The position numbers and the translations under genes were made by a program. Positions 17,857 through 62,763 of a DNA stretch of 64,000 nt are shown here, one piece after another. The notes beneath the pieces were generated by a model that worked only from the letters and a program-made list of their open reading frames with translations, had not been told where the DNA came from and made no database searches. Every line of letters begins with the position of its first letter. Position 1 is the first letter of the stretch. The DNA is taken from NCBI GenBank assembly GCA_905147135.1, contig LR990060.1:7704001-7768000 (forward strand), read 5' to 3'. This stretch comes from Blastobasis lacticolella. Lineage: Eukaryota; Arthropoda; Insecta; Lepidoptera; Blastobasidae.

Positions 17857-17999
17857 CGCGTTACGTTATTTTATTAATTAATACAAATGATTTAGGTTAG
17901 ATAACACAACACAACCACGAAAGTTGACAGCTCCATTGCCTCACAAATGTCAAACTGATAAGATAACCTTTATCAATTTGTAAACAAACGTAGTCGTTA

Positions 18000-37900: not shown

Positions 37901-40900
37901 CATGGTAATTTTAATAAACACCTCTTCACTATAGGTCTCACAGACGGACCTGTGTGCAGAGCCTGCCTGAAAGAAGAGGAGACAGCTGCCAACATCCTGC
38001 GAACATGCGAGGCAGTGGCCTCATACAGGCTTGAGCATCTCGGACGACCACAAACCCGGAGACGTTTGTAAAACCGATTTGCTACGTTTCCTGGTAGAGT
38101 GATGGCAAGAACAATAAGGTATCACATCCACGCAGAATAGGCGCGAGTTCGTCGCACTGCGAAAGCGGCCCGGATACATCTAAGCTTCTTATTTGTATCA
38201 AAATAAAAGAAGATTTTTTTTTTATTCTATTCAGTGACAAACGAGCCGACAGGCTACAATTAATAACATCTACATTTCATACATTTGCGGTCTGCCACGC
38301 AAAAGGAACCGGGTTCGATTCCCGGCCGGGCAGAAATTGAAATGATTAATTTTAATTTCTGTTACGGGTCTGGGTGTTTTATGTATAATAAGTATGTATT
38401 TAAAAGCATTTAAGTAGTTTTTCAGTTATCTAGCACCCCGACACAAGCTTTGCTTAGTTTGGGGCTAGATGGCGCTGTGTGAATTTGTCCACGAATATTT
38501 ATTTATTTATTTATGTTGCAGGTAACAAAAATACAGAACCGCAAGTGCGTTGTCACTATGAGGACTAAGATCAAAATGCCTTATGCCTGTAATTTCGCTG
38601 GCTGCCACACAACCATGCAAGCATTACATAGGTTTCAAGACTTTCGTGACACTTTCACTACACATGTTATCGGGAATCAAGCGAGTAACAATGGTAGTGG
38701 TTCGAGAATTCGAAGTAGGGTAATCGGCGAATCCGAAAGAGTGTGGACCGATATGTCTGTCCTTAGGAGCGACTTCACACAGCGGCACCAGTCAACTCGT
38801 GACCGTGACGCATGCAATTGCGTCGAAATATCGATATCATGCAAGCATCGTTGGTTAGCGGCAGAAATAGGTAAGGCGGTGGTATTCACCCAGGCGGACT
38901 CCTCAGGCTTGACAGAGTCCTCATCATCATATATTTAAGAGTACGACTCTTGTCGGTGGAGCAATCTGCCAACCTCATCATTTCTTCATAATTTCCGGCG
39001 CTCACTTTTTCCTTCACGTCCTTCCAATATTCAAATCTTGGCGTTCCTGTTCCCCCTCTTTACCTCAACTTTGGATTCTATTATCACTCTTAAAAAGTTT
39101 ACATGTCTTATTACGTGTCCTAGCATTCCCCTTTCTGTTCTCAATAACACCAGACAGAGTCCTACCACTTGATAAAATCTAATCTAATCTAATAGTGACA
39201 TAGTTTGAATCTGTTACTGGCCTATTTGCAAGTAACTTATTCTTTGTTTTCTTATAATGTAATGTGCTGTAGATTCTTGTTGAATAAAGAAATCTTAATC
39301 TTAATATATATATAAAATGCTTGTGTGGGTACGTGTGTGACCGGTTTTCTTTATCATCACCAATTCCAATCAACACCCCATTGGGGTGGTAGACACCCCT
39401 TGGGTCCTAGAAGGAAGTAAGGGAGTTTGGGCGCGGTGGGTGGAAGTGGGTGGTTGTGGGAGGCAAAAATGTAATATAAGATATATATCTGTCCTTTTCT
39501 AACTCATTAGAACTTCGGGAAAGTTCTGAAAATTTCTAGAATGATCTAGAAAGTACTGAAATTAATAATATCGGTTATTATCATTCTGGAACGTTCCAGA
39601 AAGTTCGGTGTATATTTTAACCCACGCCGGGTTTCGCAGCTAGTAATAAATAATAATATGATGTAACGATACGCATAGCGATACATACCGTTAGTCTCGA
39701 TGGCGAGCGAAGTGCAGACCCCCAGCGCGTCCTTGGGCAGCCGCACCTGCCGCCGCAGCGCCGCGTCGCCCGACAGCCGCTCGTAGTCTTTGTTCGTGTA
39801 CGCCAGGGTGCCGTCGATGCCTGGATAGGACGGGGGGATTCATTAATTAATGATTTTCTTTTTAATTTTATTATAAACAATCAAGTTCATGTGCAACTCG
39901 CAATATTTAGTATGCTTAAAGGAGCATCCACCCGCTGCCATGATTATATTACCACCTTCATGTACGTGTGATGACTGAATAAATGATTATGATTATTTAT
40001 TGCTTTAAAATGTGGTATAAAGTAGCTGTTACAATTACGATTCGCTTCTTACACTTAGCCAGAAACTGACATGCAATATTTGAAGCAAAATTAATCTAAT
40101 TAATATTAGAATTAATCTAATTAATATTAGAATAGCAACAAAATTCATAAATAATCATTAATACAAAGCTACAAAATTATTAACTTAAAAGCTACAAGAT
40201 ATTTCAAATAATAATATTAAAAGCGCTAAAACACACGCGCTAACAAGTTAAAATGTCAAAATAAGAACCAACGGAAGCAAATGCAAACTTTTACTTTACA
40301 CTGGTAACATTTCCACTGATTACTTTATGGTACTATATTACGCGCTTATTACATTTGGCTAAATTCAGTCGTCTAAATTCAGAAGCAAAAGCGGGAGACA
40401 ATCAATGTGGAATGTATTGCTCACAAAATAAGGTCTATTTTTGTATCACTTTATGTTACGCATAGCTCCGCTTTTTAAAAGGCATGATACAATTAGTTAG
40501 AGTAGGCAGTTAGCCAATAAAACGGCGTTCTTTTTGATTACGTAAGTCACTATTTTGTATTCTAATCGTTATTATTTTTCACACACAGCCTATATTAGAC
40601 ATAGTCCGGTCGTGACTTGTCCTGAGTGTCTTAGCCGCCATAATTTGGATTTCAGCCAATAAAACATCATTATTTTGATAGTGACATTTTTCAACTTTAC
40701 TGTCCTGGCAAACCATCCATCCATCAACTTTTTCATATACATGTCGTCGCGTGAAGGAAAGGGTGTATCAGGATCATTGTCATCAGGGTGGTGATATCAG
40801 TATTAGATCGTCCAGATATTTTTTATTTAGATTAAAGAAAAGGTTCACATTTACTCCACTGTATTTATTCCAATTCATTTTTGCACATCACTTATAATTT

Positions 40901-43900: not shown

Positions 43901-46900
43901 CACTTACTCGTATTTACTTTTTCTTTCGATTAATAACTTGATACCAACATAAAATTAAATTACTAACCAAACTACCCCTTTTTTTCCGTTTTGTAGTATT
44001 AAAAGAAACGTATATGAGTGATCCCATTGTTACCGAGGATATCTTCTATAACATTGGGAAACTACGACCACAATAACAAACATACTGAAATATGGAAAAG
44101 TTCGTTCGAATGTCTCCTGTTAAATGTAAACAAACACGCTAACAATTTTTCTCTTTTTTTTTCGATACATGTTGGCACCCTCCCGCTCGCATAGAAATCA
44201 CGGAGATCTTTATTGGGTCATTATTGAAATTATGCACATTCGAAGCCTATCCTATCTCTAAGATACAACATCCTAAAGTACACCAGCTAATTGTTCCACA
44301 AACTTACTGCTACGGCATCCCTGCCACACTGTTATTATCAAATATTTACTTAATCAGCAATCTGGAACGATTTATGATGACGGGAAAAGTCGAAGGCAAG
44401 AGACCCAGAGGCCGAAGTCCGAAGAGATGGGCGGACCAAATATCCGAACGATACATCCGTCAACGTCGCATTACATCAGGCGATCGATGGAGACAAACTC
44501 CGAAGATGTCACGATCCTCAGCAGTGAGGTAACGATCAAGAAGAAGAAGTCAATCAGCGGCAGTACCACCATAACGATGCTTACGTACTCAATTTATAAA
44601 AATAATAGGACTATGCTTTCAAGTATTTCTTATTCTTGTTTTCCTATAACTGACGTGATGTTGGTAATACGTTAAATCATAGCGTGTTTCAAGATGGGAA
44701 AATAATCTTAGATTAAATGTCACTTTTTTTAATTTTAACACAGTGTACTGTAACATTTAGAGGGATTTAACATAATTCTATATTTGATATAGGCAAAAGC
44801 TAATATTTATTAAACTTGGCAGTAGTTTTTGACATCTTTACCAACAGTTTGTAACACTGACCATAAATGACGTTCTTTTTGTTTCGTTTACATCCTTTCT
44901 ATTTGTAGTTTCACTAAAGGTACAAATTAACCTAATAAAATTAATAAGTAGCGCCTGTTGTGCCATTTATTACTTTGCCTGTTTTTCACGATGTATTTCC
45001 TGTGCACAATAAACTGTTAAATAAATAAATAAATAAAATAACCTGCCCTCCTCTCTAATAGTGTTTCTGTCAGAATACTTTTCTGAATTATCAAAGTAAA
45101 TAACTCTTAAAATCTGCTAGGGAGCCTCTTTTCAGCACAGGTTTTTACCAAATAATAATTATGTATAGGACTCACCAGATAAAGAGGAACTGTCAATATC
45201 ACATCATTTCTCAGTCATGTACGCAACACTCGCAGATTGTCTACCATCGTCCCATGTTGAAACAGTCACGTTGAGGCTACCAGTCTAGCGTTGCATTGCA
45301 ATGTTGTTCTCGTAGGTGAAGCAAACCGTTGTACACAAAGTGCCGTCCATAGTAAGTTTCACTCGATTTTTAATAATTGTGTCAATATCCCAATGGTGCT
45401 CTCGAAGGCCCGAGGTCTGCCTTGACCATAACCAATTGGTACAGATGATTTGTTGTTTACTTTATAAATCCCCCAATCTGTCTGACGAAGTCTTTGTCTT
45501 ATATCTCGGGGTGTTTGGACTCTTGGCTGCGCTTTGAACGTGTTTAATCATTTTATATTTTAATGTAAGCAATTCAACTGGATCGAGTAATCACTTTCCT
45601 TTTATTATTACGCTTCCACAAAGCGTTATCTGCATTTTCTTTGTCGCTTCTCATCATACCATCTCTTGGGCGTTGCGTTCGTCATCACCGCTTCTGATGT
45701 CGTCGCGTGAAGGAAAGGGTGTATCAGGATCATTGTCATCAGGGTGGTGATATCAGTATTAGATCGTCCAGATATTTTTTATTTAGATTAAAGAAAAGGT
45801 TCACATTTACTCCACTGTATTTATTCCAATTCATTTTTGCACATCACTTATAATTTCGCTTGAAATCAGAGCAGTATCACAATGTAGGCAGTTGAGGTGA
45901 TTAACTTTCTTATTTCAAAAGTGATTTTAAAATTACTTTATTTTCAAACGTAAATAACACTTTCTATAAACGAAATGTGGAGACAGTTTCAAGACGCGTC
46001 ACTCCTCGGCGGCGGTCGCGCCAAGAATGGCCGCCACTCGGCCCGAGTCGTGCCGTCGAGACTCTGTCAGCACGCCCCACCAGAGGGCGCACTCCCACTT
46101 CCGTTTTCGTCGTCATGAGTCCGTACTATTGACCACATGACTCCGTACTATTGACCGCATCCGTCATACATATTGTTTTTTAGCATTAGCGAATAGCATG
46201 AGGAAAAAGCGTGAGAATAGCGAATAGCATGAGAACATACCGAACAGCGTCTTGGCGGCCCGCTTCTTAGCGAGAGTGAACTCGCCGTCCATGATGATGT
46301 GCAGCGTCACGGAGTTCTCGAGCAGCGCGTGTTGCACCGTCGACAGACCCAGCTGGGGAATCGGGATACATTTACTTTTTATAGTGTTACCCACTATTTT
46401 TGTGTTAAAGTGTACTGTGGTCACTTTTAAGTATTTTAACACATAGCTAAAATTGTTAGTAATAACCTATGTAATGCTACATTACACATTTATGTTTCAG
46501 TGTATAAATTGTTAGTGATCATAAATAAACAGATCGGGAACATGAACAATTGAGTATATAGACTGGACTCTAATTCTCGCGTTGTGAGAATCTCGAATTC
46601 GACATTATTTCTAGCCACATATTTTTATTAATAATGACATTGAAATGTCTATTGCAGCCAAAACATATTTTCTCAACTATCTTCGACAGTCGTATATTGT
46701 CAAAGATCAATCTCAGTGACGTTTTAATACAGCTATTTGGCTAGAGAGAATGTCGAGTTTTAAGATGTCACAACGCGAGATTCGCTCCCCTGGGCAGCGA
46801 TAGCTTAGTACGTTTAGTTTAGTATTAGAGTATAGGTTTAGCTAGTGTAGTGATCACGCTCAAATGATCGTAAATTAGGCAATATAGTACAAGTAAAACA

Positions 46901-49900
46901 GGTATTGTAGGCAAGTTTGTTAAACTAGTGAGCGGTAGTGTATGTTTAGTGAGCCAGTGTGCAGGAATGCCTATGAGGGCGTATGCGTAATTGTGTCTAT
47001 GAGTGCGCATGTGTAATTGTGTCTACGACTGAGCATGTGTAATGAGCAGTTTTCCAATAGGTATCTTAAGCATTCTTAACCACTCACTAGATGGCGCCCA
47101 GACAATGTTGGTAATTGATAATCGCTTGAAATAGGTTCTTAGCAAACAGGATATAAACACTGGGTACGTTGTATTGGATAATATTGTATTTGTCAATAGT
47201 TTTCAACCATTTTAGAGGTTGTAATAATAATGGAACATAGTGCCAAGTTCTATTAATATTACTTTTTACATTTCGTTCAATGTTTAACAGTATGTTTATA
47301 TTAATAAACATTTTATTTTAAAGTTTAGTATTAATTGGCTGCATGAAATTACTGCCACCAACATACAGATTAAAAAAAGATTCTATTGATGCTTTTTAAA
47401 CCAACTATTAATACCTACTGGAAAACTCCTTATTGTGTCTATCACTGCGTATGTGTAAGTGTGTCTATAAGTGCGCATGTGTAATTGTGTCTACAACTGT
47501 GCATGGGAGAGTGTCCATGACTGCGCATGTGTGATTGTGTCCACCACTGCGCATGTGCGAGTGTCTATGACTGGGCAAGTGTAAGTGTGTCTATGACTGC
47601 GCAGCAGCAGCCGCGGCGCGGCCGGCCGCAGCGGCAGTGCGTGTATGACTGTATATGTGTGTGTGTCCACCCACCCGCATATGGTCCTGCCGGCAGCGCG
47701 AGCACGGGAACAGCAGCAGCAGCCGCGGCGCGGCCGGCCGCAGCGGCAGTGCGTCTATGACTGTATATGTGTGTGTGTCCACCCACCCGCATATGGTCCT
47801 GCCGGCAGCGCGAGCACGGGAACAGCAGCAGCAGCCGCGGCGCGGCCGGCCGCAGCGGCAGTGCGTCTATGACTGTATATGTGTGTGTGTCCACCCACCC
47901 GCATATGGTCCTGCCGGCAGCGCGAGCACGGGAACAGCAGCAGCAGCCGCGGCGCGGCCGGCCGCAGCGGCAGTGCGTCTATGACTGTATATGTGTGTGT
48001 GTCCACCCACCCGCATATGGTCCTGCCGGCAGCGCGAGCACGGGAACAGCAGCAGCAGCCGCGGCGCGGCCGGCCGCAGCGGCAGTGCGTCTATGACTGT
48101 ATATGTGTGTGTGTCCACCCACCCGCATATGGTCCTGCCGGCAGCGCGAGCACGGGAACAGCAGCAGCAGCCGCGGCGCGGCCGGCCGCAGCGGCAGTGC
48201 GTCTATGACTGTATATGTGTGTGTGTCCACCCACCCGCATATGGTCCTGCCGGCAGCGCGAGCACGGGAACAGCAGCAGCAGCCGCGGCGCGGCCGGCCG
48301 CAGCGGCAGTGCGTCTATGACTGTATATGTGTGTGTGTCCACCCACCCGCATATGGTCCTGCCGGCAGCGCGAGCACGGGAACAGCAGCAGCAGCCGCGG
48401 CGCGGCCGGCCGCAGCGGCAGTGCGTCTATGACTGTATATGTGTGTGTGTCCACCCACCCGCATATGGTCCTGCCGGCAGCGCGAGCACGGGAACAGCAG
48501 CAGCAGCCGCGGCGCGGCCGGCCGCAGCGGCAGTGCGTCTATGACTGTATATGTGTGTGTGTCCACCCACCCGCATATGGTCCTGCCGGCAGCGCGAGCA
48601 CGGGAACAGCAGCAGCAGCCGCGGCGCGGCCGGCCGCAGCGGCAGTGCGTCTATGACTGTATATGTGTGTGTGTCCACCCACCCGCATATGGTCCTGCCG
48701 GCAGCGCGAGCACGGGAACAGCAGCAGCAGCCGCGGCGCGGCCGGCCGCAGCGGCAGTGCGTCTATGACTGTATATGTGTGTGTGTCCACCCACCCGCAT
48801 ATGGTCCTGCCGGCAGCGCGAGCACGGGAACAGCAGCAGCAGCCGCGGCGCGGCCGGCCGCAGCGGCAGTGCGTCTATGACTGTATATGTGTGTGTGTCC
48901 ACCCACCCGCATATGGTCCTGCCGGCAGCGCGAGCACGGGAACAGCAGCAGCAGCCGCGGCGCGGCCGGCCGCAGCGGCAGTGCGTCTATGACTGTATAT
49001 GTGTGTGTGTCCACCCACCCGCATATGGTCCTGCCGGCAGCGCGAGCACGGGAACAGCAGCAGCAGCCGCGGCGCGGCCGGCCGCAGCGGCAGTGCGTCT
49101 ATGACTGTATATGTGTGTGTGTCCACCCACCCGCATATGGTCCTGCCGGCAGCGCGAGCACGGGAACAGCAGCAGCAGCCGCGGCGCGGCCGGCCGCAGC
49201 GGCAGTGCGTCTATGACTGTATATGTGTGTGTGTCCACCCACCCGCATATGGTCCTGCCGGCAGCGCGAGCACGGGAACAGCAGCAGCAGCCGCGGCGCG
49301 GCCGGCCGCAGCGGCAGTGCGTCTATGACTGTATATGTGTGTGTGTCCACCCACCCGCATATGGTCCTGCCGGCAGCGCGAGCACGGGAACAGCAGCAGC
49401 AGCCGCGGCGCGGCCGGCCGCAGCGGCAGTGCGTCTATGACTGTATATGTGTGTGTGTCCACCCACCCGCATATGGTCCTGCCGGCAGCGCGAGCACGGG
49501 AACAGCAGCAGCAGCCGCGGCGCGGCCGGCCGCAGCGGCAGTGCGTCTATGACTGTATATGTGTGTGTGTCCACCCACCCGCATATGGTCCTGCCGGCAG
49601 CGCGAGCACGGGAACAGCAGCAGCAGCCGCGGCGCGGCCGGCCGCAGCGGCAGTGCGTCTATGACTGTATATGTGTGTGTGTCCACCCACCCGCATATGG
49701 TCCTGCCGGCAGCGCGAGCACGGGAACAGCAGCAGCAGCCGCGGCGCGGCCGGCCGCAGCGGCAGTGCGTCTATGACTGTATATGTGTGTGTGTCCACCC
49801 ACCCGCATATGGTCCTGCCGGCAGCGCGAGCACGGGAACAGCAGCAGCAGCCGCGGCGCGGCCGGCCGCAGCGGCAGTGCGTCTATGACTGTATATGTGT

Positions 49901-52900
49901 GTGTGTCCACCCACCCGCATATGGTCCTGCCGGCAGCGCGAGCACGGGAACAGCAGCAGCAGCCGCGGCGCGGCCGGCCGCAGCGGCAGTGCGTCTATGA
50001 CTGTATATGTGTGTGTGTCCACCCACCCGCATATGGTCCTGCCGGCAGCGCGAGCACGGGAACAGCAGCAGCAGCCGCGGCGCGGCCGGCCGCAGCGGCA
50101 GTGCGTCTATGACTGTATATGTGTGTGTGTCCACCCACCCGCATATGGTCCTGCCGGCAGCGCGAGCACGGGAACAGCAGCAGCAGCCGCGGCGCGGCCG
50201 GCCGCAGCGGCAGTGCGTCTATGACTGTATATGTGTGTGTGTCCACCCACCCGCATATGGTCCTGCCGGCAGCGCGAGCACGGGAACAGCAGCAGCAGCC
50301 GCGGCGCGGCCGGCCGCAGCGGCAGGCGCGCGGCGAACGCGAGCGCCGCGAACACGTCCGCGCGCGACGACCGGTTGCCGCGACCTATCTCCGCGTTGTC
50401 TGCGATACGGGGCAGGGTGTTAGTCATCATAATCAACATCATATCAGCTGAAAGACGCCTGCTGACGACTACTGGGCATAGGCCTCCCCCAGAGATCTCC
50501 AAGGCCGGTCCAGGGGGGCGATTCTCGCGCTGTGACATCTCGAATTCGAAATTTTTACTACCCAAAAAACTATATTAAAATGTCGCTGAAATTGATCTTT
50601 GACAATATACGACTGTCGAAGATAGTTGATCACATATTTTTTGGTTGCAATAGACATTTCAATGTCATTATTAATGGAGATATGTGGCTAATATGTCGAT
50701 ATGATATATGTCGAATTCAAGATGAGAATTTGACGATTGAAAGACATATGTAATGTCCTATCCAATCAAGAAATATTGACTTAATGTCACAATGCGAAAA
50801 GAGGCCCCTGTGCCTTCCACATCCAGCCGGTACCTGCGATCTTTACCAGGTCGTTGGTCCACCTTGTGGGCGGCCTACCCGCTCTGCGTCTTAGTGCGTT
50901 GTTCTAATTGGCAATGGTCGTACGACGGACGGCACCCGACCAGTAAGTCCTCGAAACCGCCCGTCGAACGACCATGGTCACACGAGTCGCACGACCGACG
51001 TAGCCCGACCAATAAGAGACCTCAAAACCGCCCGACGCACGACCATTGCCAATTAGGACAGAGCCCATAACATGTTTATGTTTTATATACAGGATGGATT
51101 TTTGAGACGGGGCAGTAAGGGCAGGAACCTTAACCGTTGCAACTAGAGGGAAACGTTCTTAAGAGACTGTCCTTAAATTTTTGAGACAGTTTTACCCCGT
51201 TTACATATTTTGAAAAAAAATTACAGTCAGCAAGAAAAGCGACCATTTACACAAAAGCGTTTTTTTATGTCAATCGATATTGTTACTTATAAAGATCAAA
51301 AAAGTCTATGAGACCAACTGAGCTTAGAGTACTAGAAATGTCAGAAATCGCAAAAAACTTCTCCCACACATTTTGCAAAAATAAGACTCAAACTAAACAT
51401 TAAATACCTAACAAAACTTTTTACGATGCATGGATAGACTGGTCGATAAAGATGAGGTACTTACTGGTCGAAAATAATTTTGAATTTCGAATGAAATTTC
51501 TTCGAACATTTCTTAAATAGTAATCTGCTTCGAAAACAAAAAAAACTAGATTTATGATTGCTTTGCTTTGTTCTGCTAACATTCTGAGTCAAAAATGACC
51601 TCTAATTTAGAACGTTTGGACTTACTCGAAGTATATTATTTAAATAATAAAAACCCAACAACCGCTTTGGCAACCCCATACACTCATGGGTGTCGTACAA
51701 GGCGACTAATGTTTTCGAGGCAAAAGATCAAGAGTCTCCGTAGTCTGGAAAATGGGCATCAGCATTTTCCATTTTTATATTTAAACACTGCGATCTCCAA
51801 CCCGCCTGCCAAGCGTGGAGATTATGGCAATAACCTCCCCTTTCGTGGAAGAGGCCCTAAGTCCTGCAGTGGACTGTTACGGGCTGTGATGATGATGATG
51901 AACCGCTTTGGAGTGGTACAGGATCAAATATCCAATGAGAGTATTGCCAACCAGAAAGGTTATTATAAATCTTTTAAAGAATCTCGAAGAATGTGGCTCG
52001 TTCAAGAAAGTGTTTGTACGACATTCATTGGTATTGGATGAAGATATGGTGATTGCAATTTTATCATAGTAGAAGCTTATCCTAAGATATCTTCAAGACA
52101 TGTCGCTGCTGAAGTGGGTGTATCTCACTCACTTGTTTTGAAGACATGGAAGAAGTACCGATATAAATGTTACCGGCAGGGGCGAATAGTTCAGGCATTC
52201 CTCTAGATTTCTTTATGTGGGGCTATTTAAAAAATAAAAGAAGAAAAGAGGCACTAACAACGATTCTGTATGGAATTAATCCAAGTACATTATCGGCTGC
52301 TACCCACTCAGTAGAAAAGAGGGTAAACCTATGCATCCGCCAAAACGGCAACCATTTTGAGCACCTCATATCTTAAAACATAAAAAGGTACTAACTATGT
52401 AAAATTTCTCGTAATCGTACATACAAGGTGGGCCAAACGAAATCACCCTATTGAAAGATGCTCTCATTTTTGCAAATGGCCGCCAATGTCAAATCTGTTT
52501 TGACATTTGTAGACTAGACAGATGCAGGATACAAGTGAACAAGCCATGGAGCGATACACTCCCCAAGAACGCAGAATAATCGTGTCTATTTTTTTGCGTA
52601 ACAATTCGTCTGTGGTGTTGGCGCAGCACTGATTCCCCGGCCGTCTGACACCGACTGCGCAAACACTGCGCCGTTTGGCCACCAATCTTGAAGAGTATGG
52701 TACCACACGAGACGTTGCCAAGAGTGGCCGGCCCCGGAGTGGAAGTTTTTTTGACCAAAATTTCGCCTCATCTCTCGTTTTGGAGATTTGCACTGGCCTG
52801 CAAGATCGCCCGATTTAAGTGTTCCAGACTTTTTTTGTGGGGTTTTTGAAGTCCCGTGTTTACGTGAACAAGCTCGAGACTCTGGAAGCCCTCAAGGACA

Positions 52901-55900
52901 ACATTCGACACGAGTGCGAGAATCTGTCGCCCGAAGTTCTCGCCGAAGTGATGAAAAATGCCATAAAACAAGCCCGTATGGCAATCAATTGTGACGGCGC
53001 CCATCTGGCCTATATAATCTTCTCGACTTGACCAATAAAATTGTAAAGGTTCAAATAAACATAATCAAAAAACAGAATCGAAGTTTTTCATTTTGAATAA
53101 AAAAGAGAGCCAAACAACTTCGGATGACTTCTTTTGGCCCACCTTGTATTTTGCCATCTTATTTTAATACATGCCTAATCGTTTTCAATTCCTTATTTTT
53201 GTTTATTTCAGTACTTAATAGTATGTAAATATCATATCGACGACGAAGCCACAAACAAAATTTATGGGAGAAGTTTTTTTGCGATTTCTGACATTTCTTG
53301 TACTCTAAGCTTAGTTGGTCTCATAGACTTATTTGATATTTTTTGACATAAAAAAAGTTTTTGTGTAAATGGTCTATTTTCTTGCTGACTGTACCTTTTT
53401 TTTAAATCTGTAAATGGGGGTAAAACTCTCTCAAAAAGTTAAAGACAGTCTCTTAAGAACGTTTCCCTCTAGTTGCAACGGTTAAGGTACCTGCCCTTAC
53501 TGCCCCGTCTCAAAAATCCACCCTGTATTACCCACAAATATATATTTTATAGGCATGTTAGTGTAGCTTCATAATATATAATAAAGGGTTTATATTGGTT
53601 TGTTACCCTGTTACATTTAGTTACATGTGCCTATCCTGTTATATTAACTTTATTATTAATTTACCTTAGCGTTCTCAAATCTCAAAAAACTCAATAGTAA
53701 ATATCTATATCTATCTACCTACCTGTACTACATATACTACATATACTGTGTACTACATATACAGAGACAGAGCTCAGAAGCAAAAATCGACGTGTAGACC
53801 AACTGACATCTAATTATGTCTTAATGGAATAGTTAGCCCTAGCACAGGCCCTGGCCTATTTGGGCTGCTATGTTCAAATACCATTTAGCTTATACGGTTT
53901 TTAGGCACATGCTTGGACTTGAGGTATTAAAATTGTCATTATGCATTGAGAAATAATAAATAAATAAACAGTTCACTGCAGGACTTAGGGCCTCTCCCAC
54001 GAAAGGGGAGGCTATTGACATAATCTCCACGCTTGGAAGACAGGTTGGAGATCGCAGTGTTGTAATTATAATAATGGAAAACGCTGCTGCCCATATTCCA
54101 CAATATGGAGACAATAGATCATTTGCCTCGAAAACATTAGTCGCCTTGTCTGACACCCACGAGTGTAAGGGGTTGGTGCTATTCTACTCTGCCGGACACG
54201 GCCAACGGTCACGGTAACTTCACGGTCTTAGTGCGCTGTACGAATTGGCAATGGTCGCACGAGTGGCACGACCGACGTCGCCCGGCCAATAAGATACCTC
54301 AAAACCGCCTGTCGCACGACCGTTGCCAATTAAGACGCGCCTCAAGCTTAATTAGGCGTTGCTTAGCTTGTCGCCTAAATTATTTTTTCCTAACAAGAAA
54401 AAATTATGCACAAAGTCCTAACAAGAAAAAATAGCACTTGTAACATAAATAAAATAATAAACAAATAAAAAATACTCACCGATGACGAAGTTGTCCAAAT
54501 GCTGTCCGATGACGGAGGCGGTGGCGAAGGCGCGGTGGTTCACGTACAGCGCTCGCGGCGAGCGGTATGAGGATCGACCGCCGTACCCCACTATAGCGTA
54601 CCTGTAGGTGGAGATTACAGATTTTATTGGGGTTCAGTCATAGACGTCTGACCATGCCGCCCCCACCAGGCACGGGAAGGAGGCCGGCCCAAGAAGCGAT
54701 GGCTGGACGTCGTTAAGAGTGACATGTGTGCCAACGGACTCACTACTAAGAATGCCGAAGACCGAGCAAAGTGGACTGAGAAAAGCAGGAAGCAACCTTG
54801 ATTTAACGCCAAGATGATGATGATGATGAGTCACTACTAATTGGCCGTTATAAATAAATAAATATAAAATAAATATGCTTGGACTAATTCACACAGCGCC
54901 ATCTAGCCTCAAAGCAACCAACGCTTGTGTTATGGGTGTTAGATCATTGATATTTGTATTGATATGGGAGTTAGATACTAATTATATACCTTTTTTCTTT
55001 TTTTTTAATACGTACTTATTATCCATACTACACTCGAGACTCGTAGCAGAAATTAAAATACATCATTTCAATTTCTGCGCGGCCGGGAATCGAACCCAGG
55101 ACCTCTGCGTGGCATGTTAACCAACTGAACCACTCAGGCCGTCCAAGCATATAACAGGACCAAGAATAGATCCTTGCGGCATACCCATTGTCTTATAGGC
55201 GTAACAGTCTATCACGTATTGGTATTCAGTAAAGGCACTACTAATCAGCCAATGTAAGCCATATTATATATTGATCAAACGAACTTCGCGAAGTTCGATC
55301 GATATCATATGAGTCGCTTCATTCGAAGATATAAGATTATTCACAACGTAGTCCCTTTAGCCTACAAGGTAGCTTCGCACGTTTATTTAAAGTAAAATCG
55401 ATTTGTTTTCAATCGATCATTTTTTGTTTTTTCGATCCTACGTATCGATACAGCCAGCCGCCATTTTTACGTCATTCTTTTTAGAGATGCTATGCGAAAC
55501 TTCCCCACGCCTGGGAATATGGGCGGGCGGGTGTTATTTATATCTTCGAATGAAGCGACTCATATAATATCGATCGAACTTCGCGAAGTTCGTTTGATCA
55601 TATATTATATTTCGTCGCTTCATTCTTCAGATATAAGATTATTCACAGCGTAGATGTTTGGAGAGGGAAGTTTTGCAAATTTTAAACAAAATATTAATTA
55701 TTCATACATTTTAAACAATGTATTAATTATACGGTATCAACCGCAAATGAAACATATTACATAATGGAAACTGTGGTTAATTCATTATTACGAAAGCAAA
55801 CGGGTTTAACAAATCGGCCGACATCAGCGATCGGCCTGATATAATATCTGGCGAAAACGCCCCGCCGCGGAGACGCCGCCGGCCCCAGCGCCGGACACCG

Positions 55901-58900: not shown

Positions 58901-61900
58901 ATTGATCCCCGATCAACTAAAAACCATTCCGAAGATAAAACCACGGATATGTGAAGAATGTGGGTATATCCACAAAATAAATCCGCACTGCCGATTCTCG
59001 ATCGACTCTAAATGATTCTTGATCATCAGCAGGTTGAGACACTTGGGATTATTGCACATTGCACATTGGTTCACGACCAACCTCCAGGTTCTGTGTCGAT
59101 ACCGTCGTGTTGGTTCTCGACCAACATCCGGGTGAATATGCACATTGCCTTCGTGATGGTTCACGACCAACCTCCAAGCTCTGTGTCGATACCGTCGTGT
59201 TGGTTCTCGACCAACATCCAGGTGAATATGCACATTGCCTTCGTGATGGTTCTCGACCAACCTCCAGGCTCTGTGTCGATACCGTCGTGTTGGTTCTCGA
59301 CCAACATCCGGGTGAATATGCACATTGCCTTCGTGATGGTTCACGACCAACCTCCAAGCTCTGTGTCGATACCGTCGTGTTGGTTCTCGACCAACATCCA
59401 GGTGAATATGCACATTGCCTTCGTGATGGTTCTCGACCAACCTCCAGGCTCTGTGTCGATACCGTCGTGTTGGTTCTCGACCAACATCCAGGTGAATATG
59501 CACATTGCCTTCGTGATGGTTCTCGACCAACCTCCAGGCTCTGTGTCGATACCGTCGTGTTGGTTCTCGACCAACATCCAGGTGAATATGCACATTGCCT
59601 TCGTGATGGTTCTCGACCAACCTCCAGGCTTTGTGTCGATACCGTCGTGTTGGTTCTCGACCAACATCCAGGTGTATAATTTTCCGTCGCATTGATTCTC
59701 GACCAACGTCCAGGTTTATTCCATCGTGTTGACTCACGGCCAACCCCCAGGTTTTACATTGAAACACTCGATGCATCATTACACGTATCACATTTAGCGA
59801 AAATCGCGTAAAATAGTAACTTACTTAGTTTTAATCGGAATCTAAAGTATCTAAAAACCTCGATCATCACCAGGTTGAGAAACTAGATTATTGCATATTG
59901 CCTTTGTGATGATTCACGACCAACCTCCAGGTTCTGTGTCGATACCGTCGTGTTGGTTCTCGACCAACATCCGGGTGAATATGCACATTGCCTTCGTGAT
60001 GGTTCACGACCAACCTCCAGGCTCTGTGTCGATACCGTCGTGTTGGTTCTCGACCAACATCCGGGTGAATATGCACATTGCCTTCGTGATGGTTCTCGCC
60101 CAACCTCCAGGCTTTGTGTCGATACCGTCGTGTTGGTTCTCGACCAACATCCAGGTGTATAATTTTCCGTCGCATTGATTTTCGACCAACGTCCAGGTTT
60201 TTTCCATCGTGTTGACTCACGGCCAACCCCCAGGTTTTACATTGAAACACTCGATGCATCATTACACGTATCACATTTAGCGAAAATCGCGTAAAATAGT
60301 AACTTACTTAGTTTTAATCGGAATCTAAAGTATCTAAAAACCTCGATCATCACCAGGTTGAGAAACTAGATTATTGCATATTGCCTTTGTGATGATTCAC
60401 GACCAACCCCCAGGCGGTGTATGCGTAGTTATTTGATATCGTCGTGTTGATTCTCGACCAACCTCCAGATGAAATATTAATTATATTCTTCATTTTTTAT
60501 TGTATATACAATAAAGCTAAATCACCGTCGTGTTGACTCACGGCCAACCCCCAGGTTTTGTATTAATACAATCAATGCATAAATTATAAAAGTAACTACA
60601 TTCGGCGAAAATATTGTAGGTACTTACATGAATTTTTATCGGAATCTGAAGTGTAATCCGAGAATATCGCCACTTTGTGACATCGTAGGTTTTTGCTTTT
60701 TCTTTTAAAATACCGAATCTTGTTTTGAAATAAAATTTTAACAATTTGTTGTGCACCACGTGTGCACGATGTGCTCGCTACCTCGCACGAAAAAGGAATG
60801 ACGTAAAAATGGCGGCTGGCTGTATCGATACGTAGGATCGAAAAAACAAAAAATGATCGATTGAAAACAAATCGATTTTACTTTAAATAAACGTGCGAAG
60901 CTACCTTGTAGGCTAAAGGGACTACGTTGTGAATAATCTTATATCTGAAGAATGAAGCGACGAAATATAATTACTAAAACATAGGACCAAGAACAGATCC
61001 TTGCGGCACACTCATTGATTTTGGGTCATACCCTAATATCGGGCATATGGGGATGACGGTTCCACGTTCTATTGGGATTCGGTTGACTCTGAGTCACTAG
61101 TAATCGGCCAATGAAAGGTATATTGGTATACCGAGTGCCAAGTGTGGATCCTTGCGGCATACCCTATGTACAACATCACAATAGCAGCTCACAACAGTAC
61201 ATTGCTGGACTTGATCCTCCTCCACAGGAGTTCCATAAACGCCATGCTTAGCACGCGGGTTGGATATCGCAGTGTTGAAAACACTCAACAGAAAACATTT
61301 CTGCTTATGATATGGTTTTCGAAAGTTCTAGCTTGTATGCCTCTAAGAAGTATAAAGGACACCCGTTATGGTAAATTTTTAGACAGCTACTTTAAAAGGT
61401 AAAAAGTGTAGTTCAGCGTGCCTCACTAAAAGACGCTGCTTAGAAAGGATTCTCATGTATTGAATTTGGTAACCGAAATTACTTGGAAAGGTGTAAAGGT
61501 ACTTAGTTTTAGTACCTTTTCGGAGAAGAAAGCGCAAAATGTCTAAACTTTATTACATCTAACGGTCTAGTTTTGATTTATTTTTGAAAATCAACGCCAT
61601 CTGTTACTCTGGCTCACGGAAATTCTCCCATTTCATAATACGCACACAGTCAGCGTGCGTATTATGAAAGCTATCTTACGATTTGCGTTGAAGTAAGAGA
61701 CACAAGCATTGTTACGTAGCCAGGAAAACTCACCGATTATCCGACAAGCCGGCATCCTGCAGTTTGCTATCGAAAGCTTCGATCAACAAGTCGATGTTCT
61801 TCTTCTTCCGAAGGTCCCGGTTGCATCGGGCTGCCTCCACTACTAGAATCACGTCGGCCACCGCCGGGGCGGAGTCCAGTGTTACGGACGACCCTTCTTC

Positions 61901-62763
61901 TACGGTTTGGCCCGTTGGCGTTGTGCATCTGAGGAGGGGAAGCGGAGTTTCAAGTAAAATAGACAAATTAATAGATAAAAGACAGCTGATTCCTATCGCC
62001 TATCTAGACGAGATAAAGCTATGTGTCCTCGCTAAGCTCGTTCTTTGTATATATACTCCCATTCAAAAGGTGTCTTGACAACAGACAACATCTGTCTCAT
62101 TTACGCCACCATTTATTACATGGTAATTTAATTATTTTATTTTATTTTTTCGACAAAACTGCACCAAACTATACCCAGTAAAAGACGAAATTACGAGACA
62201 GATGAAATCAAAAGCACATTTAAAGAGGGGCCAAGAATTGACCCTGCGGCACTTCTAGGGCCAAAATGTTACAATTGTCACTGAGCATAACATAATCTAA
62301 GTTGCTCACTAGTGGTAGGAGTTCGCCTGGAATGATAAATGTCAAATACCAAAATTAAAATATATGATAGTATAGCTACGTCGCACTGTGGGGCACAGCG
62401 AGCGTACACTTTCACTACACATGTTATCGGGTTCGTTACCACGGTTAGTATTGTTTTTACCTCGATATTTCGACGCAGTTGCATGCGTCATGGTCACGTA
62501 CTGCGTCGAAAAATCGAGATAAAAACAATACTAACCGCGGTAACAAGCCCGATAACATGTGTAGTGAAAGTGTAGTGAATAACCACGTCTTAAAACCTAT
62601 AAAGCGAGCGTAGTAATGACGTAGAATGATCCGCTCACCTGACGCAGTGCTCGGGGATGTGCGCGGGCGCGCTCTGGGCGGCGCACAGCTCCAGGTAGGC
62701 GCTGCTGAGCGCGCAGCCCGCCGCGCCGCGGACGCACTCGCGGTGGAACGGATCCGCGTCGAT
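31999..62763 (-). CDS. Apolipophorin-type large lipid transfer protein, C-terminal eight exons (partial)
   Basis: Eight minus-strand exons join in perfect phase, each with AG/GT borders: 62639-62763, 61734-61928, 54480-54601, 50251-50399, 46241-46352, 39689-39820, 34537-34703 and the terminal exon 31999-32079 ending in TGA. They encode 360 residues. The first exon is Cys-rich (DPFHRECV, HCVRC) like the C8-type segment that follows a von Willebrand D domain. Next comes a VWFA-like fold (ADVILVVEAARC, NRYAIVGYGG, LLLLFPCSRC, VTLHIIMDGEF), then LAYTNKDYERLSGD, an ETNGTIFAG segment and a Cys-rich tail (CECRDARLHCLPC). This order matches, from family knowledge, the C-terminus of insect apolipophorins (apoLp-II/I or the lipid transfer particle apoLTP), secreted carriers of haemolymph lipid. 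I cannot say which paralogue. Upstream exons lie beyond the window. Introns reach 7 kb and are full of transposons. Exons 4 and 7 are partly amplified in tandem into their introns. Another VWD/VWA secreted protein is the alternative. Confidence 0.5.
32200..32345. mobile_element. MITE, family of 62400
   Basis: CTACACTTTCACTGCACATT on the left and TATGTGTAGTGAAAGTGTAG on the right form the inverted repeat. It lies 120 bases upstream of the terminal apolipophorin exon. Confidence 0.5.
33180..33340. mobile_element. MITE, third copy of the family at 23395
   Basis: TGGCGCTACTGAGGCGCAAG and the complementary end TCTCAGTAGCGCTATCTGG enclose TGCTGCCGC-type interior sequence. It lies between the terminal apolipophorin exon and array A. 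Confidence 0.5.
33609..34616. repeat. Tandem array A: exon end + splice donor + intron start, 8 copies
   Basis: Donor-containing units start at 33644, 33773, 33902, 34031, 34160, 34289, 34413 and 34537. The first five steps are 129 bp and the last two 124 bp, because GCACG is missing once from the GC-rich run. Each unit holds 80 bases of the apolipophorin exon (reading CECRDARLHCLPCQDTQRM), the donor GTGAGT and a CA-rich intron piece. Because 129 is a multiple of three, long artificial open frames of about 270-400 codons appear in five of the six frames. They are products of the repeat and not genes. Confidence 0.5.
34537..34703 (-). CDS. Apolipophorin exon 7 of those in the window (Cys-rich tail), with amplified 3' end
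   Basis: This 167-base exon enters in phase after ..AAC G and reads GTIFAGARLSES and then CECRDARLHCLPCQDTQRM, followed by donor ATG|GTGAGT. Its last 80 bases (34537-34616) plus about 49 intron bases form the unit of the adjacent tandem array. The donor at 34537 is the first one met by the spliceosome in transcription order, and using it keeps the phase of the terminal exon at 32079. Confidence 0.5.
34990..36215 (+). pseudogene. R1/Jockey-like non-LTR retrotransposon fragment (ORF1 and RT pieces)
   Basis: Plus-strand frames read KKKVYSPKTAAVVLPSP and ARKFVKPAELGINQ, typical of the ORF1 gag-like protein, then after breaks a Cys-rich knuckle remnant near 35590 and reverse transcriptase motifs LLDEAGKLFERVFASRLNSH and GVSQGSVLGPLLWN near 36150. 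Frames are interrupted many times. It ends where the minisatellite begins. Confidence 0.5.
36222..36460. repeat. Second copy of the 16/15-bp minisatellite
   Basis: It has the same starting sequence and unit order as the array at 42112 but fewer copies. The sequence after it (37026-37165) also matches that after the other array (42508-42645), so both belong to one larger repeat. Confidence 0.5.
36493..37021. mobile_element. MITE inserted beside the minisatellite
   Basis: The termini TATAGGATGATAATTTTGAC and, on the opposite strand, TATAGGATGTTAATTTTGAC are inverted repeats. The interior is AT-rich and contains a perfect short hairpin (TTTCGACTCGTGCGTATTA and complement, 36706-36740). It separates the two shared blocks 36222-36460 and 37026-37165. 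Confidence 0.5.
37800..38215 (+). pseudogene. Non-LTR retrotransposon 3' end
   Basis: The frame reads RALPGHGNFNKHLFTIGLTD and then CRACLKEEETAANILRTCE, the Cys-rich region after RNase H in R1/Jockey-type ORF2. The end resembles the minus-strand fragment at 20285-20620. An A-rich tail follows near 38205. Confidence 0.5.
38290..38520 (+). mobile_element. tRNA-derived SINE
   Basis: B box GGTTCGATTCC at about 38313, then the same body as the copy at 54860 and an ATTTATTTATTT tail. The A-box half is missing or diverged, so this is not a tRNA gene. Confidence 0.5.
38636..38835. mobile_element. MITE, family of 62400
   Basis: Shares GACACTTTCACTACACATGT at the left and CAATTGCGTCGAAATATCGA at the right, but has a longer interior than the copy at 62400. 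Confidence 0.5.
38890..39130 (-). pseudogene. LINE 3' coding tail
   Basis: Minus frames contain HVIRHVNFLRVIIESKVEVK and EEMMRLADCSTDKS, similar to non-LTR ORF2 C-termini. It is broken by frameshifts. Confidence 0.5.
39299..39643 (+). mobile_element. Short non-autonomous Helitron
   Basis: The 345-bp element starts A|TCTTAATATATATATAAAAT and ends with hairpin AACCCACGCCGGGTT and GCTAG|T. It lies 45 bases from the donor of apolipophorin exon 39689-39820. Confidence 0.5.
40742..41210. repeat. Left LTR
   Basis: This is a 469-bp direct repeat with TG...CA ends, flanked on the left by TACA. The second half is GC-rich and contains a short internal repeat, GAGTCCGTACTATTGACC then GACTCCGTACTATTGACC. 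Confidence 0.5.
42112..42505. repeat. Minisatellite of 16- then 15-bp units (CACACAGGCGGGATGC type)
   Basis: Units of CAGGCGGGATGCCACA (16 bp) change to CAGGCGGGAGCCACA (15 bp) toward the right end. The two unit lengths give periodic open frames in several frames, which I treat as artefacts. The array begins with AGATGTCACACAAGGGTAAA and lies inside the LTR element. Confidence 0.5.
43000..44360. other. Non-coding interior of the LTR element
   Basis: No frame longer than about 65 codons and no gag, protease, RT or integrase motif was seen in any frame. Confidence 0.5.
44370..44545 (+). pseudogene. LINE 3' coding tail
   Basis: The frame reads MTGKVEGKRPRGRSPKRWAD, the C-terminal motif of a common lepidopteran non-LTR family. 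It lies inside the LTR element. Confidence 0.5.
45698..46166. repeat. Right LTR
   Basis: This is the same 469-bp sequence as the left LTR, followed by TACA. The near-identity of the pair implies a recent insertion. Confidence 0.5.
46560..46805. mobile_element. MITE with AATCTCGCGTTGTGAC-type ends
   Basis: The ends ATTCTCGCGTTGTGAGAATC and complement GAATCTCGCGTTGTGACATC are inverted. The interior CATTGAAATGTCTATTGCA and TCTTCGACAGTCGTATATTG recurs, inverted, at 50508-50803. Confidence 0.5.
46920..47602. repeat. TG-rich minisatellite of about 28-30 bp, split by a MITE
   Basis: Degenerate copies of TGTGTCTATGACTGCGCATG occur at 46990-47040 and 47437-47602. They are separated by a MITE at 47040-47436. 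The same motif (CTATGACTGTATATGTGTGT) forms the intron part of array B, so this intron was probably a minisatellite before the exon end was drawn in. Confidence 0.5.
47040..47436. mobile_element. MITE, family with GAGCAGTTTTCC termini
   Basis: Terminal inverted repeats start GAGCAGTTTTCCAATAGGTA on the left, with TACCTACTGGAAAACTCCTT on the right. The inner sequence (GATGGCGCC, TTGATAATCGCTTG) matches the copies at 10014-10421 and 18717-19170. No coding capacity. Confidence 0.5.
47603..50325. repeat. Tandem array B: exon end + splice donor + intron start, about 24 copies of 112 bp
   Basis: The 112-bp unit contains 75 bases of apolipophorin exon (CSRCRQDHMR end), the donor GTGGGT and 37 bases of TG/CA-rich intron. 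Donors recur every 112 bp from 47675 to 50251. I see no difference between units over most of the array; the outermost unit at 47640 differs slightly (GTGTATGACTG). The many 83- and 109-codon open frames here are repeat artefacts. Confidence 0.5.
50251..50399 (-). CDS. Apolipophorin exon 4 of those in the window (VWFA-like core strand), with amplified 3' end
   Basis: This 149-base exon follows acceptor TATCGCAG and reads DNAEIGRGNRSSRADVFAAL and then LLLLFPCSRCRQDHMR, ending at donor CGG|GTGGGT. Its last 75 bases (25 codons) plus 37 intron bases are the 112-bp unit repeated about 24 times downstream in the intron. The phase matches both neighbouring exons (54480-54601 and 46241-46352). Confidence 0.5.
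50508..50803. mobile_element. MITE, family of 46560, inserted into a SINE
   Basis: It splits a SINE into 50425-50507 and 50804-50900. The ends GGCGATTCTCGCGCTGTGAC and complement CCTCTTTTCGCATTGTGACA are inverted. Confidence 0.5.
50905..51055. mobile_element. Small MITE, TAATTGGCAATGGTCG ends
   Basis: Inverted ends TAATTGGCAATGGTCGTACG and complement TAATTGGCAATGGTCGTGCG. The interior is a roughly 70-bp duplication (CGACC..AAACCGCCCG). A one-unit copy lies at 54243-54332. Confidence 0.5.
51670..51905 (+). mobile_element. SINE of the ACTCATGGGTGTCGTACAAG family
   Basis: It runs from CACTCATGGGTGTCGTACAA to GGGCTGTGATGATGATGATG. Other copies are 10750-10985, 22785-23012, 29640-29850 (with its start at 29015-29030), a fragment at 32450-32560 and, on minus, 4975-5185 and 53960-54190. 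This copy is nested in a mariner-like element. Confidence 0.5.
52422..53148 (+). mobile_element. Mariner-like element nested in another, internally deleted
   Basis: Termini TACAAGGTGGGCCAAACGAA and complement TACAAGGTGGGCCAAAAGAA, consistent with TA insertion. A transposase frame starts at 52546 (MERYTPQERRIIVSIFL) and breaks at an in-frame stop near 52627. A C-terminal piece with HWPARSPDLSVPDFF and LSPEVLAEVMKNAIKQAR ends at 53031. The catalytic centre is deleted. Confidence 0.5.
53960..54190 (-). mobile_element. SINE (ACTCATGGGTG family)
   Basis: Minus-strand copy from CAGTTCACTGCAGGACTTAG to CACGAGTGTAAGGGGTTGGT. Confidence 0.5.
54243..54332. mobile_element. Small MITE, one-unit copy of 50905
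   Basis: AATTGGCAATGGTCGCACGA and the complement of its end enclose a single AAACCGCCTG core. Confidence 0.5.
54625..54835 (+). pseudogene. RTE-like LINE 3' tail
   Basis: The plus frame reads GRPKKRWLDVVKSDMCANGL and DRAKWTEKSRK, then the tail AACGCCAAGATGATGATGAT. Related shorter tails occur at 1735-1810, 14744-14825 and, on minus, 10985-11035 and 45400-45430. Confidence 0.5.
54860..55150 (-). mobile_element. tRNA-derived SINE, best copy
   Basis: On the minus strand it has A box TGGTTCAGTTGGTTAACAT and B box GGTTCGATTCC, then AGAAATTGAAATGAT and a body ending GCTAGATGGCGCTGTGTGAA and an ATTTA-rich tail. Other copies are 38290-38520 (plus) and a fragment at 17095-17205 in the Coa7 intron. 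Confidence 0.5.
55155..55260 (-). pseudogene. LINE reverse transcriptase fragment
   Basis: The minus frame reads MGMPQGSILGPV, the conserved RT region ahead of the catalytic YxDD box. The fragment abuts a tRNA-type SINE at 54860-55150. Comparable fragments lie at 60985-61165. Confidence 0.5.
55262..55612. mobile_element. MITE with about 70-bp inverted repeats
   Basis: The left arm ATCAAACGAACTTCGCGAAG.. (55262-55335) is mirrored on the right (55538-55612). The interior (55335-55480) also occurs inverted at 60785-60975. Confidence 0.5.
56634..56960 (-). pseudogene. DIRS-like retroelement RNase H fragment
   Basis: The frame 56634-56909 contains AILVRVNNTTAINYVNCQGS and EYLHAKNLARHIS. An adjacent frame reads TDWGTVYGDDWVNGCW. 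Together they resemble the RNase H region of DIRS-type elements (GWGAV..., RxDNTTAxxYIN). A frameshift separates the pieces. It lies in an apolipophorin intron. The family call is from pattern memory and is moderately sure. Confidence 0.5.
57000..57930. other. Apolipophorin intron sequence, nothing recognised
   Basis: AT-rich. A 96-codon minus frame (57432-57722) is Lys/Asn/Ile-rich without any known motif and is probably chance or transposon debris. Confidence 0.5.
57940..58450. other. GC-rich, CpG-rich stretch of unknown nature
   Basis: Two blocks (about 57950-58120 and 58325-58440) are far richer in G, C and CpG than the AT-rich surroundings, with CGGCGGCGC-type runs. Open frames of 60-100 codons occur on both strands but none shows a recognisable domain. 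A third milder block lies at 58560-58710. It could be a transposon part, a CpG-rich exon I do not recognise, or a regulatory region. Confidence 0.5.
59060..60530. repeat. 90-bp tandem repeat with higher-order duplication
   Basis: Seven units start near 59071, 59161, 59251, 59341, 59431, 59521 and 59611. Each 90-bp unit is two diverged 45-bp halves that share TCTCGACCAAC and end in TCGTGTTGGT or TCGTGATGGT. Units alternate between two types over 59071-59430, suggesting a 180-bp step. A second, shorter array (59910-60150) and its flanks repeat a block of about 480 bp (59690-59930 versus 60170-60410). Open frames of up to 292 codons here come from the period being a multiple of three. Confidence 0.5.
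60775..60980. mobile_element. Inverted partial copy of the 55262 MITE
   Basis: The stretch with TGGCGGCTGGCTGTATCGAT and CGATTTTACTTTAAATAAAC is the reverse complement of 55300-55480. One arm only is present. Confidence 0.5.
60985..61165 (-). pseudogene. LINE reverse transcriptase fragments, two adjacent
   Basis: The minus strand shows SVPQGSVLGPMF-type coding near 60990-61015 and a second GMPQGS match near 61140-61165, with about 110 bases of related sequence between. Probably two truncated copies or a duplicated piece. Confidence 0.5.
62400..62580. mobile_element. Hairpin MITE with about 70-bp arms
   Basis: The arms start ACACTTTCACTACACATGTT and end in the complement AACATGTGTAGTGAAAGTGT. 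Each arm contains TTAGTATTGTTTTTACCTCG-type sequence. Relatives occur at 11040-11270, 32200-32345 and 38636-38835. Confidence 0.5.

What the first reader, a model, noticed from the sequence alone, without database searches (positions are those of the whole stretch)
47603..50325. An exon end with its splice donor is amplified about 24 times inside an apolipophorin intron
The 112-bp unit is 75 bases of coding exon (25 codons ending CRQDHMR), the donor CGG|GTGGGT and 37 bases of intron. Donors recur every 112 bp from 50251 down to 47675. The units look identical, implying strong homogenisation or very recent growth. The pre-mRNA would carry about 24 equal 5' splice sites in a row. Only the first (50251) keeps frame with the next exon. 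Read-through beyond it runs into a stop after about 45 codons. I know of no described case quite like this, but I could not search.
Basis: partly seen in the sequence, partly recalled or inferred. Interest (0 to 1): 0.88.

Follow-up and report, generated by a model that had tools for sequence, protein, structure and literature searches.

The report
Exon ends repeated with splice sites
In what is likely a moth's lipid-transport gene (Apoltp), the tail of one predicted exon together with its predicted splice site is repeated 24 times in a row and that of another exon 8 times, and predicted proteins of two other moths carry repeats that stop at the matching places, so these exon ends are likely spots where such repeats arise again and again.

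Summary
On the minus strand, 24 donors CGG|GTGGGT recur exactly every 112 bp from 50251 to 47675; 23 of 24 units are identical. Eight predicted exons join in frame into a 360-residue C-terminus. By the names of its relatives it is lepidopteran Apoltp, the lipid transfer particle apolipoprotein. In each array only the first donor gives an open, in-frame product. Single cases of this kind are in print: human CBS (31-bp unit, 24 exonic + 7 intronic bases, 16-21 copies) and ABCA7 (25-bp unit starting with the donor). New here are two arrays in one gene, long mostly coding units, and recurrence: Apoltp gene models of Arctia plantaginis and Phthorimaea operculella carry repeats stopping at the same two exon ends. 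Best reading: donor-spanning minisatellites grown from a CA-rich 26-bp repeat beside GC-rich exons, with splicing predicted to use the first donor. Independent origin is likely, not proven; nothing was tested at RNA level.

The parts
47638..50325 (-). Array 1: 24 full units of 112 bp, each 75 nt of exon end, donor CGG|GTGGGT and 37 nt of intron start
47601..47637 (-). Truncated 25th copy of array 1, 37 nt of exon sequence joined to the older minisatellite
47434..47603 (-). Older, diverged 26-bp minisatellite (75% matches, 6.7 copies) directly beyond array 1; further copies at 46971-47043
50251..50399 (-). Predicted exon C of Apoltp, 149 nt; its end is the first copy of array 1
   Evidence: tblastn with relatives; phases
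33609..34616 (-). Array 2: 8 donors ATG|GTGAGT, donor spacings 124, 124, 129, 129, 129, 129, 129; in the 129-bp unit about 80 nt of exon end plus about 49 nt of intron start and junction
34537..34703 (-). Predicted exon F of Apoltp, 167 nt; its end is the first copy of array 2
62639..62763 (-). Predicted Apoltp exon A, single donor
61734..61928 (-). Predicted Apoltp exon B, single donor
54480..54601 (-). Predicted Apoltp exon B2, single donor
46241..46352 (-). Predicted Apoltp exon D, single donor; follows array 1
39689..39820 (-). Predicted Apoltp exon E, single donor
31999..32079 (-). Predicted last coding exon G with the stop codon; follows array 2

Best explanation
Two predicted exon ends of what is likely a moth Apoltp gene, each with its predicted 5' splice site, stand in tandem arrays of 24 and 8 copies, and these arrays are likely minisatellites that grew when a CA-rich repeat just inside the intron duplicated outwards over the splice site into a GC-rich exon. 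Steps: (1) shown: the arrays, their units, and a stretch like a CA-rich 26-bp minisatellite right after both array donors but not after the other five. (2) Inferred: a first duplication joined a break in the minisatellite to one in the exon; unequal exchange or replication slippage then multiplied and evened out the unit. (3) Inferred: the splicing machinery pairs the upstream acceptor with the first donor, giving exons of 149 and 167 nt, and removes the array with the intron; slips to the second donor would add 112 or 124 nt, lose the frame and lower Apoltp output. (4) Likely: the same exon ends have gone through this independently in other moths.
For: Arrays and unit identity. All eight exons join in frame with canonical AG and GT sites and one terminal stop; each is matched by relatives. 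Only the first donor works: array 1, 1 of 24 donors is in frame without a stop; array 2, 1 of 8 keeps the frame. The window's array donors pair well with the U1 5' end (-11.8 and -10.3 kcal/mol, among the best 1.2% of 3778 minus-strand GT sites, a count that includes the array copies themselves). 26-bp minisatellite score in the first 60 intronic bases: 45 after exon C (0 of 5924 background stretches and 0 of 1000 shuffles as good), 32 after exon F (2 of 5924 and 1 of 1000), 10-12 after the other five. Exons C and F have the highest GC of the eight, 0.758 and 0.802. Recurrence: 2 of 42 relatives carry repeat blocks that stop at these exon ends. Arctia has a 106-nt unit, every base fixed by its three-frame read-through, with CTG|GTACGT at the exon F end, 11 copies of it. 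Phthorimaea has three blocks, one of them stopping at the exon C end.
Against: No RNA or read data: exons, donors and copy number rest on one assembly and on homology. The two array introns compared directly are only weakly alike (45 of 2000 shuffled pairs as good). One unit of each array, folded as single-stranded DNA, is no more stable than shuffles (z 0.08 and +1.80), so there is no sign of a hairpin cause. Exon A is almost as GC-rich (0.752) and has no array. The Arctia donor pairs only moderately with U1 (-6.0), and the Arctia gene model reads through it instead of splicing there. The Phthorimaea blocks come from a gene model only. The coincidence of sites has a rough chance of 0.4 to 3%, depending on the assumed exon number, so it is suggestive only.
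Confidence: 0.72

Rival explanations
1. One ancient array at each exon end, kept and re-homogenised in many moths, rather than separate origins. Concerted evolution would hide the common start.
For: The same exon ends are affected in different families. Relatives with correctly spliced models could hide arrays in introns, so absence from proteins is weak evidence.
Against: Units at the exon F end differ in length and breakpoint: about 80 nt of exon in a 129-nt unit here, 42 nt of exon in a 106-nt unit in Arctia. The window is placed with neither species in the tree, though its long branch makes its place unsure.
Confidence: 0.15
2. Functional decoy: the donor array tunes Apoltp output by sending a share of transcripts to out-of-frame donors and decay, or by drawing U1 to the intron start.
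For: Every copy keeps a donor-like site. In ABCA7, retention of one repeat unit and exon 19 skipping are seen, and array length is reported to affect splicing.
Against: Units and lengths differ between species, and near-identity of units is what recent growth gives anyway. Nothing was measured.
Confidence: 0.08
3. The copies are used as extra coding exons: read-through or splicing between units adds repeats to the protein, a route to intron gain.
For: The Phthorimaea and Arctia gene models are written that way.
Against: In the window, read-through meets a stop from donor 3 on in array 1 and from donor 4 on in array 2, and the frame is lost at the second donor in both. The intron part of unit 1 is 37 nt, too short for an ordinary intron (general knowledge).
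Confidence: 0.05
4. Assembly artefact: copy number or the whole array is false.
For: Near-identical units are hard to assemble; no reads were available.
Against: Two separate arrays with different units, variant units, truncated edges and diverged flanks, plus similar blocks at the same exon ends in gene models from other assemblies.
Confidence: 0.05

Closest known systems
Human CBS 31-bp VNTR, c.1444_1467+7(16_21) (PMC2630376, passages read)
   Same: By its name the unit is 24 exonic bases plus 7 intronic bases, so exon end and donor are repeated 16-21 times
   Different: Short unit, one such array in the gene; copy number varies between people, which is untested here
Human ABCA7 intron 18 VNTR (PMC5954066, passages read)
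   Same: 25-bp unit whose first two bases are the exon 18 donor, 12 to about 427 copies; retention of one unit by a later donor is seen
   Different: The repeat lies in the intron from the donor on, one array; here 75-80 coding bases are in each unit and two exons are hit
Internal tandem repeats at exon-intron boundaries of human duplicated genes (PMC2812944, passages read)
   Same: Minisatellite growth at exon-intron boundaries changes splicing
   Different: On average 30-bp units repeated four times, in recent paralogues; the passages seen do not describe repeated donors at orthologous exons of several species
[quoted passage not shown]
   Same: A tandem duplication crosses an intron-exon boundary
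   Different: One duplication that makes a new intron at an acceptor; here many copies of a donor, and no new intron is predicted in the window

Membership tests
Exon-intron-boundary VNTR with the 5' splice site in the unit (as CBS, ABCA7) | Head-to-tail units starting at or within the exon end | tested here: met
   for both arrays
Exon-intron-boundary VNTR with the 5' splice site in the unit (as CBS, ABCA7) | Each unit holds the 5' splice site of the exon | tested here: met
   24 and 8 copies of the donor sequence at the exon end, by sequence and phase; use of the site not tested
Exon-intron-boundary VNTR with the 5' splice site in the unit (as CBS, ABCA7) | Copy number varies between individuals | not testable with these tools
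   one assembly only
Exon-intron-boundary VNTR with the 5' splice site in the unit (as CBS, ABCA7) | Array length affects splicing | not testable with these tools
   no RNA data
Intron gain by tandem duplication | A new intron bounded by duplicated splice sites | tested here: inconclusive
   in silico only: later donors lose the frame or meet a stop, and the intron part of unit 1 is 37 nt; no RNA. The Phthorimaea gene model splices between copies
Apoltp (lipid transfer particle apolipoprotein) | Sequence relationship of the C-terminal region | tested here: met
   35 hits, best E 4.5e-149; three are named Apoltp, two 'apolipoprotein lipid transfer particle', one 'Apolipoprotein of lipid transfer particle-I/II'; others are labelled apolipophorins. 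No apolipophorin control was run
Apoltp (lipid transfer particle apolipoprotein) | Lipid transport N-terminal domain and VWD domain upstream | not tested
   would lie beyond 64000, outside the window; Pfam gave no match for the C-terminal exons

The most novel reading that the evidence does not exclude
Ends of GC-rich exons with their splice donors are recurrent amplification hotspots in Lepidoptera: the same exon ends of Apoltp have sprouted donor arrays independently in at least three moth lineages, seeded by CA-rich repeats at the intron start, making moth genomes a natural experiment on how the spliceosome picks one of many equal donors.
Probability: 0.5. Interest if true: 0.78.

Novelty: new variant of a known kind. 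Interest (0 to 1): 0.62.

Why it matters
Up to 24 equal 5' splice sites in a row, all with the same 75 exonic bases upstream, would be a natural test of exon definition: local sequence is held constant and only position differs. Recurrence at the same exon ends would point to a mutational hotspot that ties exon composition and intron-start repeats to repeat growth, and could explain odd gene models such as those of Arctia and Phthorimaea. In Drosophila, lipophorin takes up most of its lipid at the gut via LTP (PMC3406001, abstract), so splicing noise here could have an effect on physiology.

Tried and rejected
Hairpin cause: single-strand DNA folds of one unit of each array are no better than shuffles (z 0.08 and +1.80). 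Pfam and solved structures gave no useful match for the Apoltp exons. The search for shorter relatives gave one protein, P0042, with no internal repeat. P0038 (Spodoptera exigua) has a two-copy 29-residue repeat elsewhere in the protein, not at the array exons, and is not counted. The other 39 of 42 relatives show no internal repeat; this is weak evidence of absence, since a correctly spliced model hides an array. Literature searches for donor arrays at boundaries, for recurrence, or for Lepidoptera (listed of found: 15 of 15, 4 of 4, 10 of 10, 12 of 367, 3 of 3, 12 of 18) showed no recurrent case in the titles and abstract starts seen; they cover the held open-licence papers only. The search of the window's own genome did not complete, so whether other genes of this genome carry such arrays is open.
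Full report
What is there. On the minus strand a 112-bp unit is repeated head to tail from 50325 to 47638, followed by a 37-nt truncated copy to 47601. Each unit is 75 nt of exon end, the donor CGG|GTGGGT and 37 nt of intron start. There are 24 donors, spaced exactly 112 bp. 23 of 24 units are identical; the one farthest from the exon has one substitution.

A second array. Tandem Repeats Finder on the whole window shows another array at 33609-34616. It has the same build: 8 donors ATG|GTGAGT (last exonic bases 34537 to 33644) at spacings 124, 124 and five times 129. Read by eye against the unrepeated exon and the intron past the last copy, about 80 nt of the 129-bp unit are exon end and about 49 nt are intron start and junction, including about 7 bases that match neither flank. 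So two exon ends of one gene are affected.

The gene. Relatives found by protein search are one family of moth and butterfly proteins of about 4,170 residues when complete: 8 hits, 35 (32 with lepidopteran species names as I know them, the unnamed P0020, and 2 beetles), 1; 42 distinct proteins in all. Three hits (Plodia, Epargyreus, Battus) are named Apoltp, two (Anticarsia, Aphomia) apolipoprotein lipid transfer particle; Operophtera is 'Apolipoprotein of lipid transfer particle-I/II'. Others are called apolipophorins or uncharacterised, and I compared no true apolipophorin. tblastn of the first eight relatives against the window located the exons. Eight predicted exons join with canonical sites, in consistent phase, into 360 residues and one stop. 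In a tree of 31 rows the window sits on a long branch (0.68), next to Ostrinia with weak support (86/46), and is placed with neither Phthorimaea nor Arctia; its place is unsure. The species is not identified; its own protein was not among the hits (best identity 63-64%).

Splicing consequences. I spliced every donor to the following exons in silico. Array 1: donor 1 gives the normal product; donor 2 loses the frame; from donor 3 on a stop lies in the read-through, 47 codons past the exon end; 8 of 24 donors keep the frame by length but only the first is free of a stop. Array 2: donor 1 is normal; donors 2 and 3 lose the frame; from donor 4 on a stop lies in the read-through; no later donor keeps the frame. 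The window's array donors are good by U1 pairing energy, -11.8 and -10.3 kcal/mol; the five other donors range from -5.5 to -11.3. That the first donor is the one used is inference from exon definition and from ABCA7, where the first GT of the repeat is the canonical donor and retention of one repeat unit is an alternative isoform.

How it may have arisen. Directly beyond array 1 lies an older, diverged 26-bp minisatellite. The intron start of unit 1 matches its consensus, and so, less strongly, does that of unit 2: alignment scores 45 and 32 against 10-12 for the other five donors, with 0 and 2 of 5924 background stretches, and 0 and 1 of 1000 shuffles, as good. The intron past the last donor of array 2 scores 39. 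A 16-base probe of the motif has 40 matches with up to 3 mismatches, 39 of them in the arrays or the minisatellite and 1 elsewhere (9866), against 0.43 expected in the window. Compared directly, the two introns are only weakly alike (45 of 2000 shuffled pairs as good). Exons C and F are the most GC-rich of the eight (0.758, 0.802); exon A is close (0.752) and has no array. At the far edge of array 1, CTGCTGC of the exon is joined to the minisatellite's GCAGTC, with TGC shared (read). I infer a CA-rich repeat at the intron start that duplicated outwards into a GC-rich exon, then growth and evening-out by slippage or unequal exchange. Single-strand folding gives no support for a hairpin cause.

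Recurrence. All 41 proteins were scanned for internal repeats, P0042. Three of 42 have any; one (P0038) is a two-copy repeat elsewhere. Arctia plantaginis (Erebidae) has a 383-residue block in which a 106-nt unit is read through in all three frames; this fixes every base: 42 nt of exon end, then GTACGT and the rest of a 64-nt intron part, 11 copies of the donor, at the exon F end. The Arctia gene model reads through these sites, and the donor pairs only moderately with U1 (-6.0). Its two nearest relatives in the tree, P0020 and P0042, show no block, which a spliced transcript would not show in any case. Phthorimaea operculella (Gelechiidae) has three blocks: one stops at the exon C end, one at the boundary just before exon A, one farther upstream where I do not know the exon structure. 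In the first two, the residue after the exon end is not valine, so the gene model does not simply read through a GT (inference). Unit lengths and breakpoints at the exon F end differ between Arctia and the window, which favours separate origins. If arrays fell on donors at random, both coincidences together would have a chance of about 0.4 to 3% for 92 to 30 assumed donors; the true exon number is unknown, so this is only a guide.

Comparison with what is known. Human CBS has a 31-bp VNTR named c.1444_1467+7(16_21), that is 24 exonic plus 7 intronic bases, 16 to 21 copies (PMC2630376, passages). Human ABCA7 has a 25-bp VNTR whose first two bases are the exon 18 donor, 12 to about 427 copies, with effects on splicing (PMC5954066, passages). 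Repeats at exon-intron boundaries of human duplicated genes are known to change splicing (PMC2812944, passages). So an array of donors is a known kind. The variant here has long, mostly coding units, two arrays in one gene, and likely repeated origin at orthologous exon ends. Searches of the held papers showed no such recurrence in the titles and abstract starts listed; one search listed only 12 of 367 and only 12 of 18.

Limits. There are no reads and no RNA; the own-genome search did not complete, so how common such arrays are in this genome is open.

Noticed in passing
36244-36458 and 42114-42503: Two arrays of the same 16-bp minisatellite (ATGCCACACAGGCGGG), both inside introns of the same gene, about 6 kb apart.
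   Followed up: no
59067-60415: 90-bp repeats with a 483-bp higher-order period in the intron between exons B and B2.
   Followed up: no
41158-41204 and 46114-46160: The same 22-bp tandem doublet CATGACTCCGTACTATTGACCA at two places, perhaps parts of a mobile element.
   Followed up: no
16644-17072 and 17464-17865, minus strand: Reading frames with Sel1-repeat similarity (the second is below Pfam's cut-off), perhaps a separate gene downstream of Apoltp.
   Followed up: partly
12706-13859, plus strand: Reading frames with repeated [17 protein letters not shown] stretches; they resemble Helitron proteins from memory, untested.
   Followed up: no
P0001, residues 787-907 and 1317-1598: The Phthorimaea operculella Apoltp model has two further repeat blocks besides the one at the exon C end; one stops at the boundary before exon A, the other at a place whose exon structure is not known here.
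   Followed up: partly
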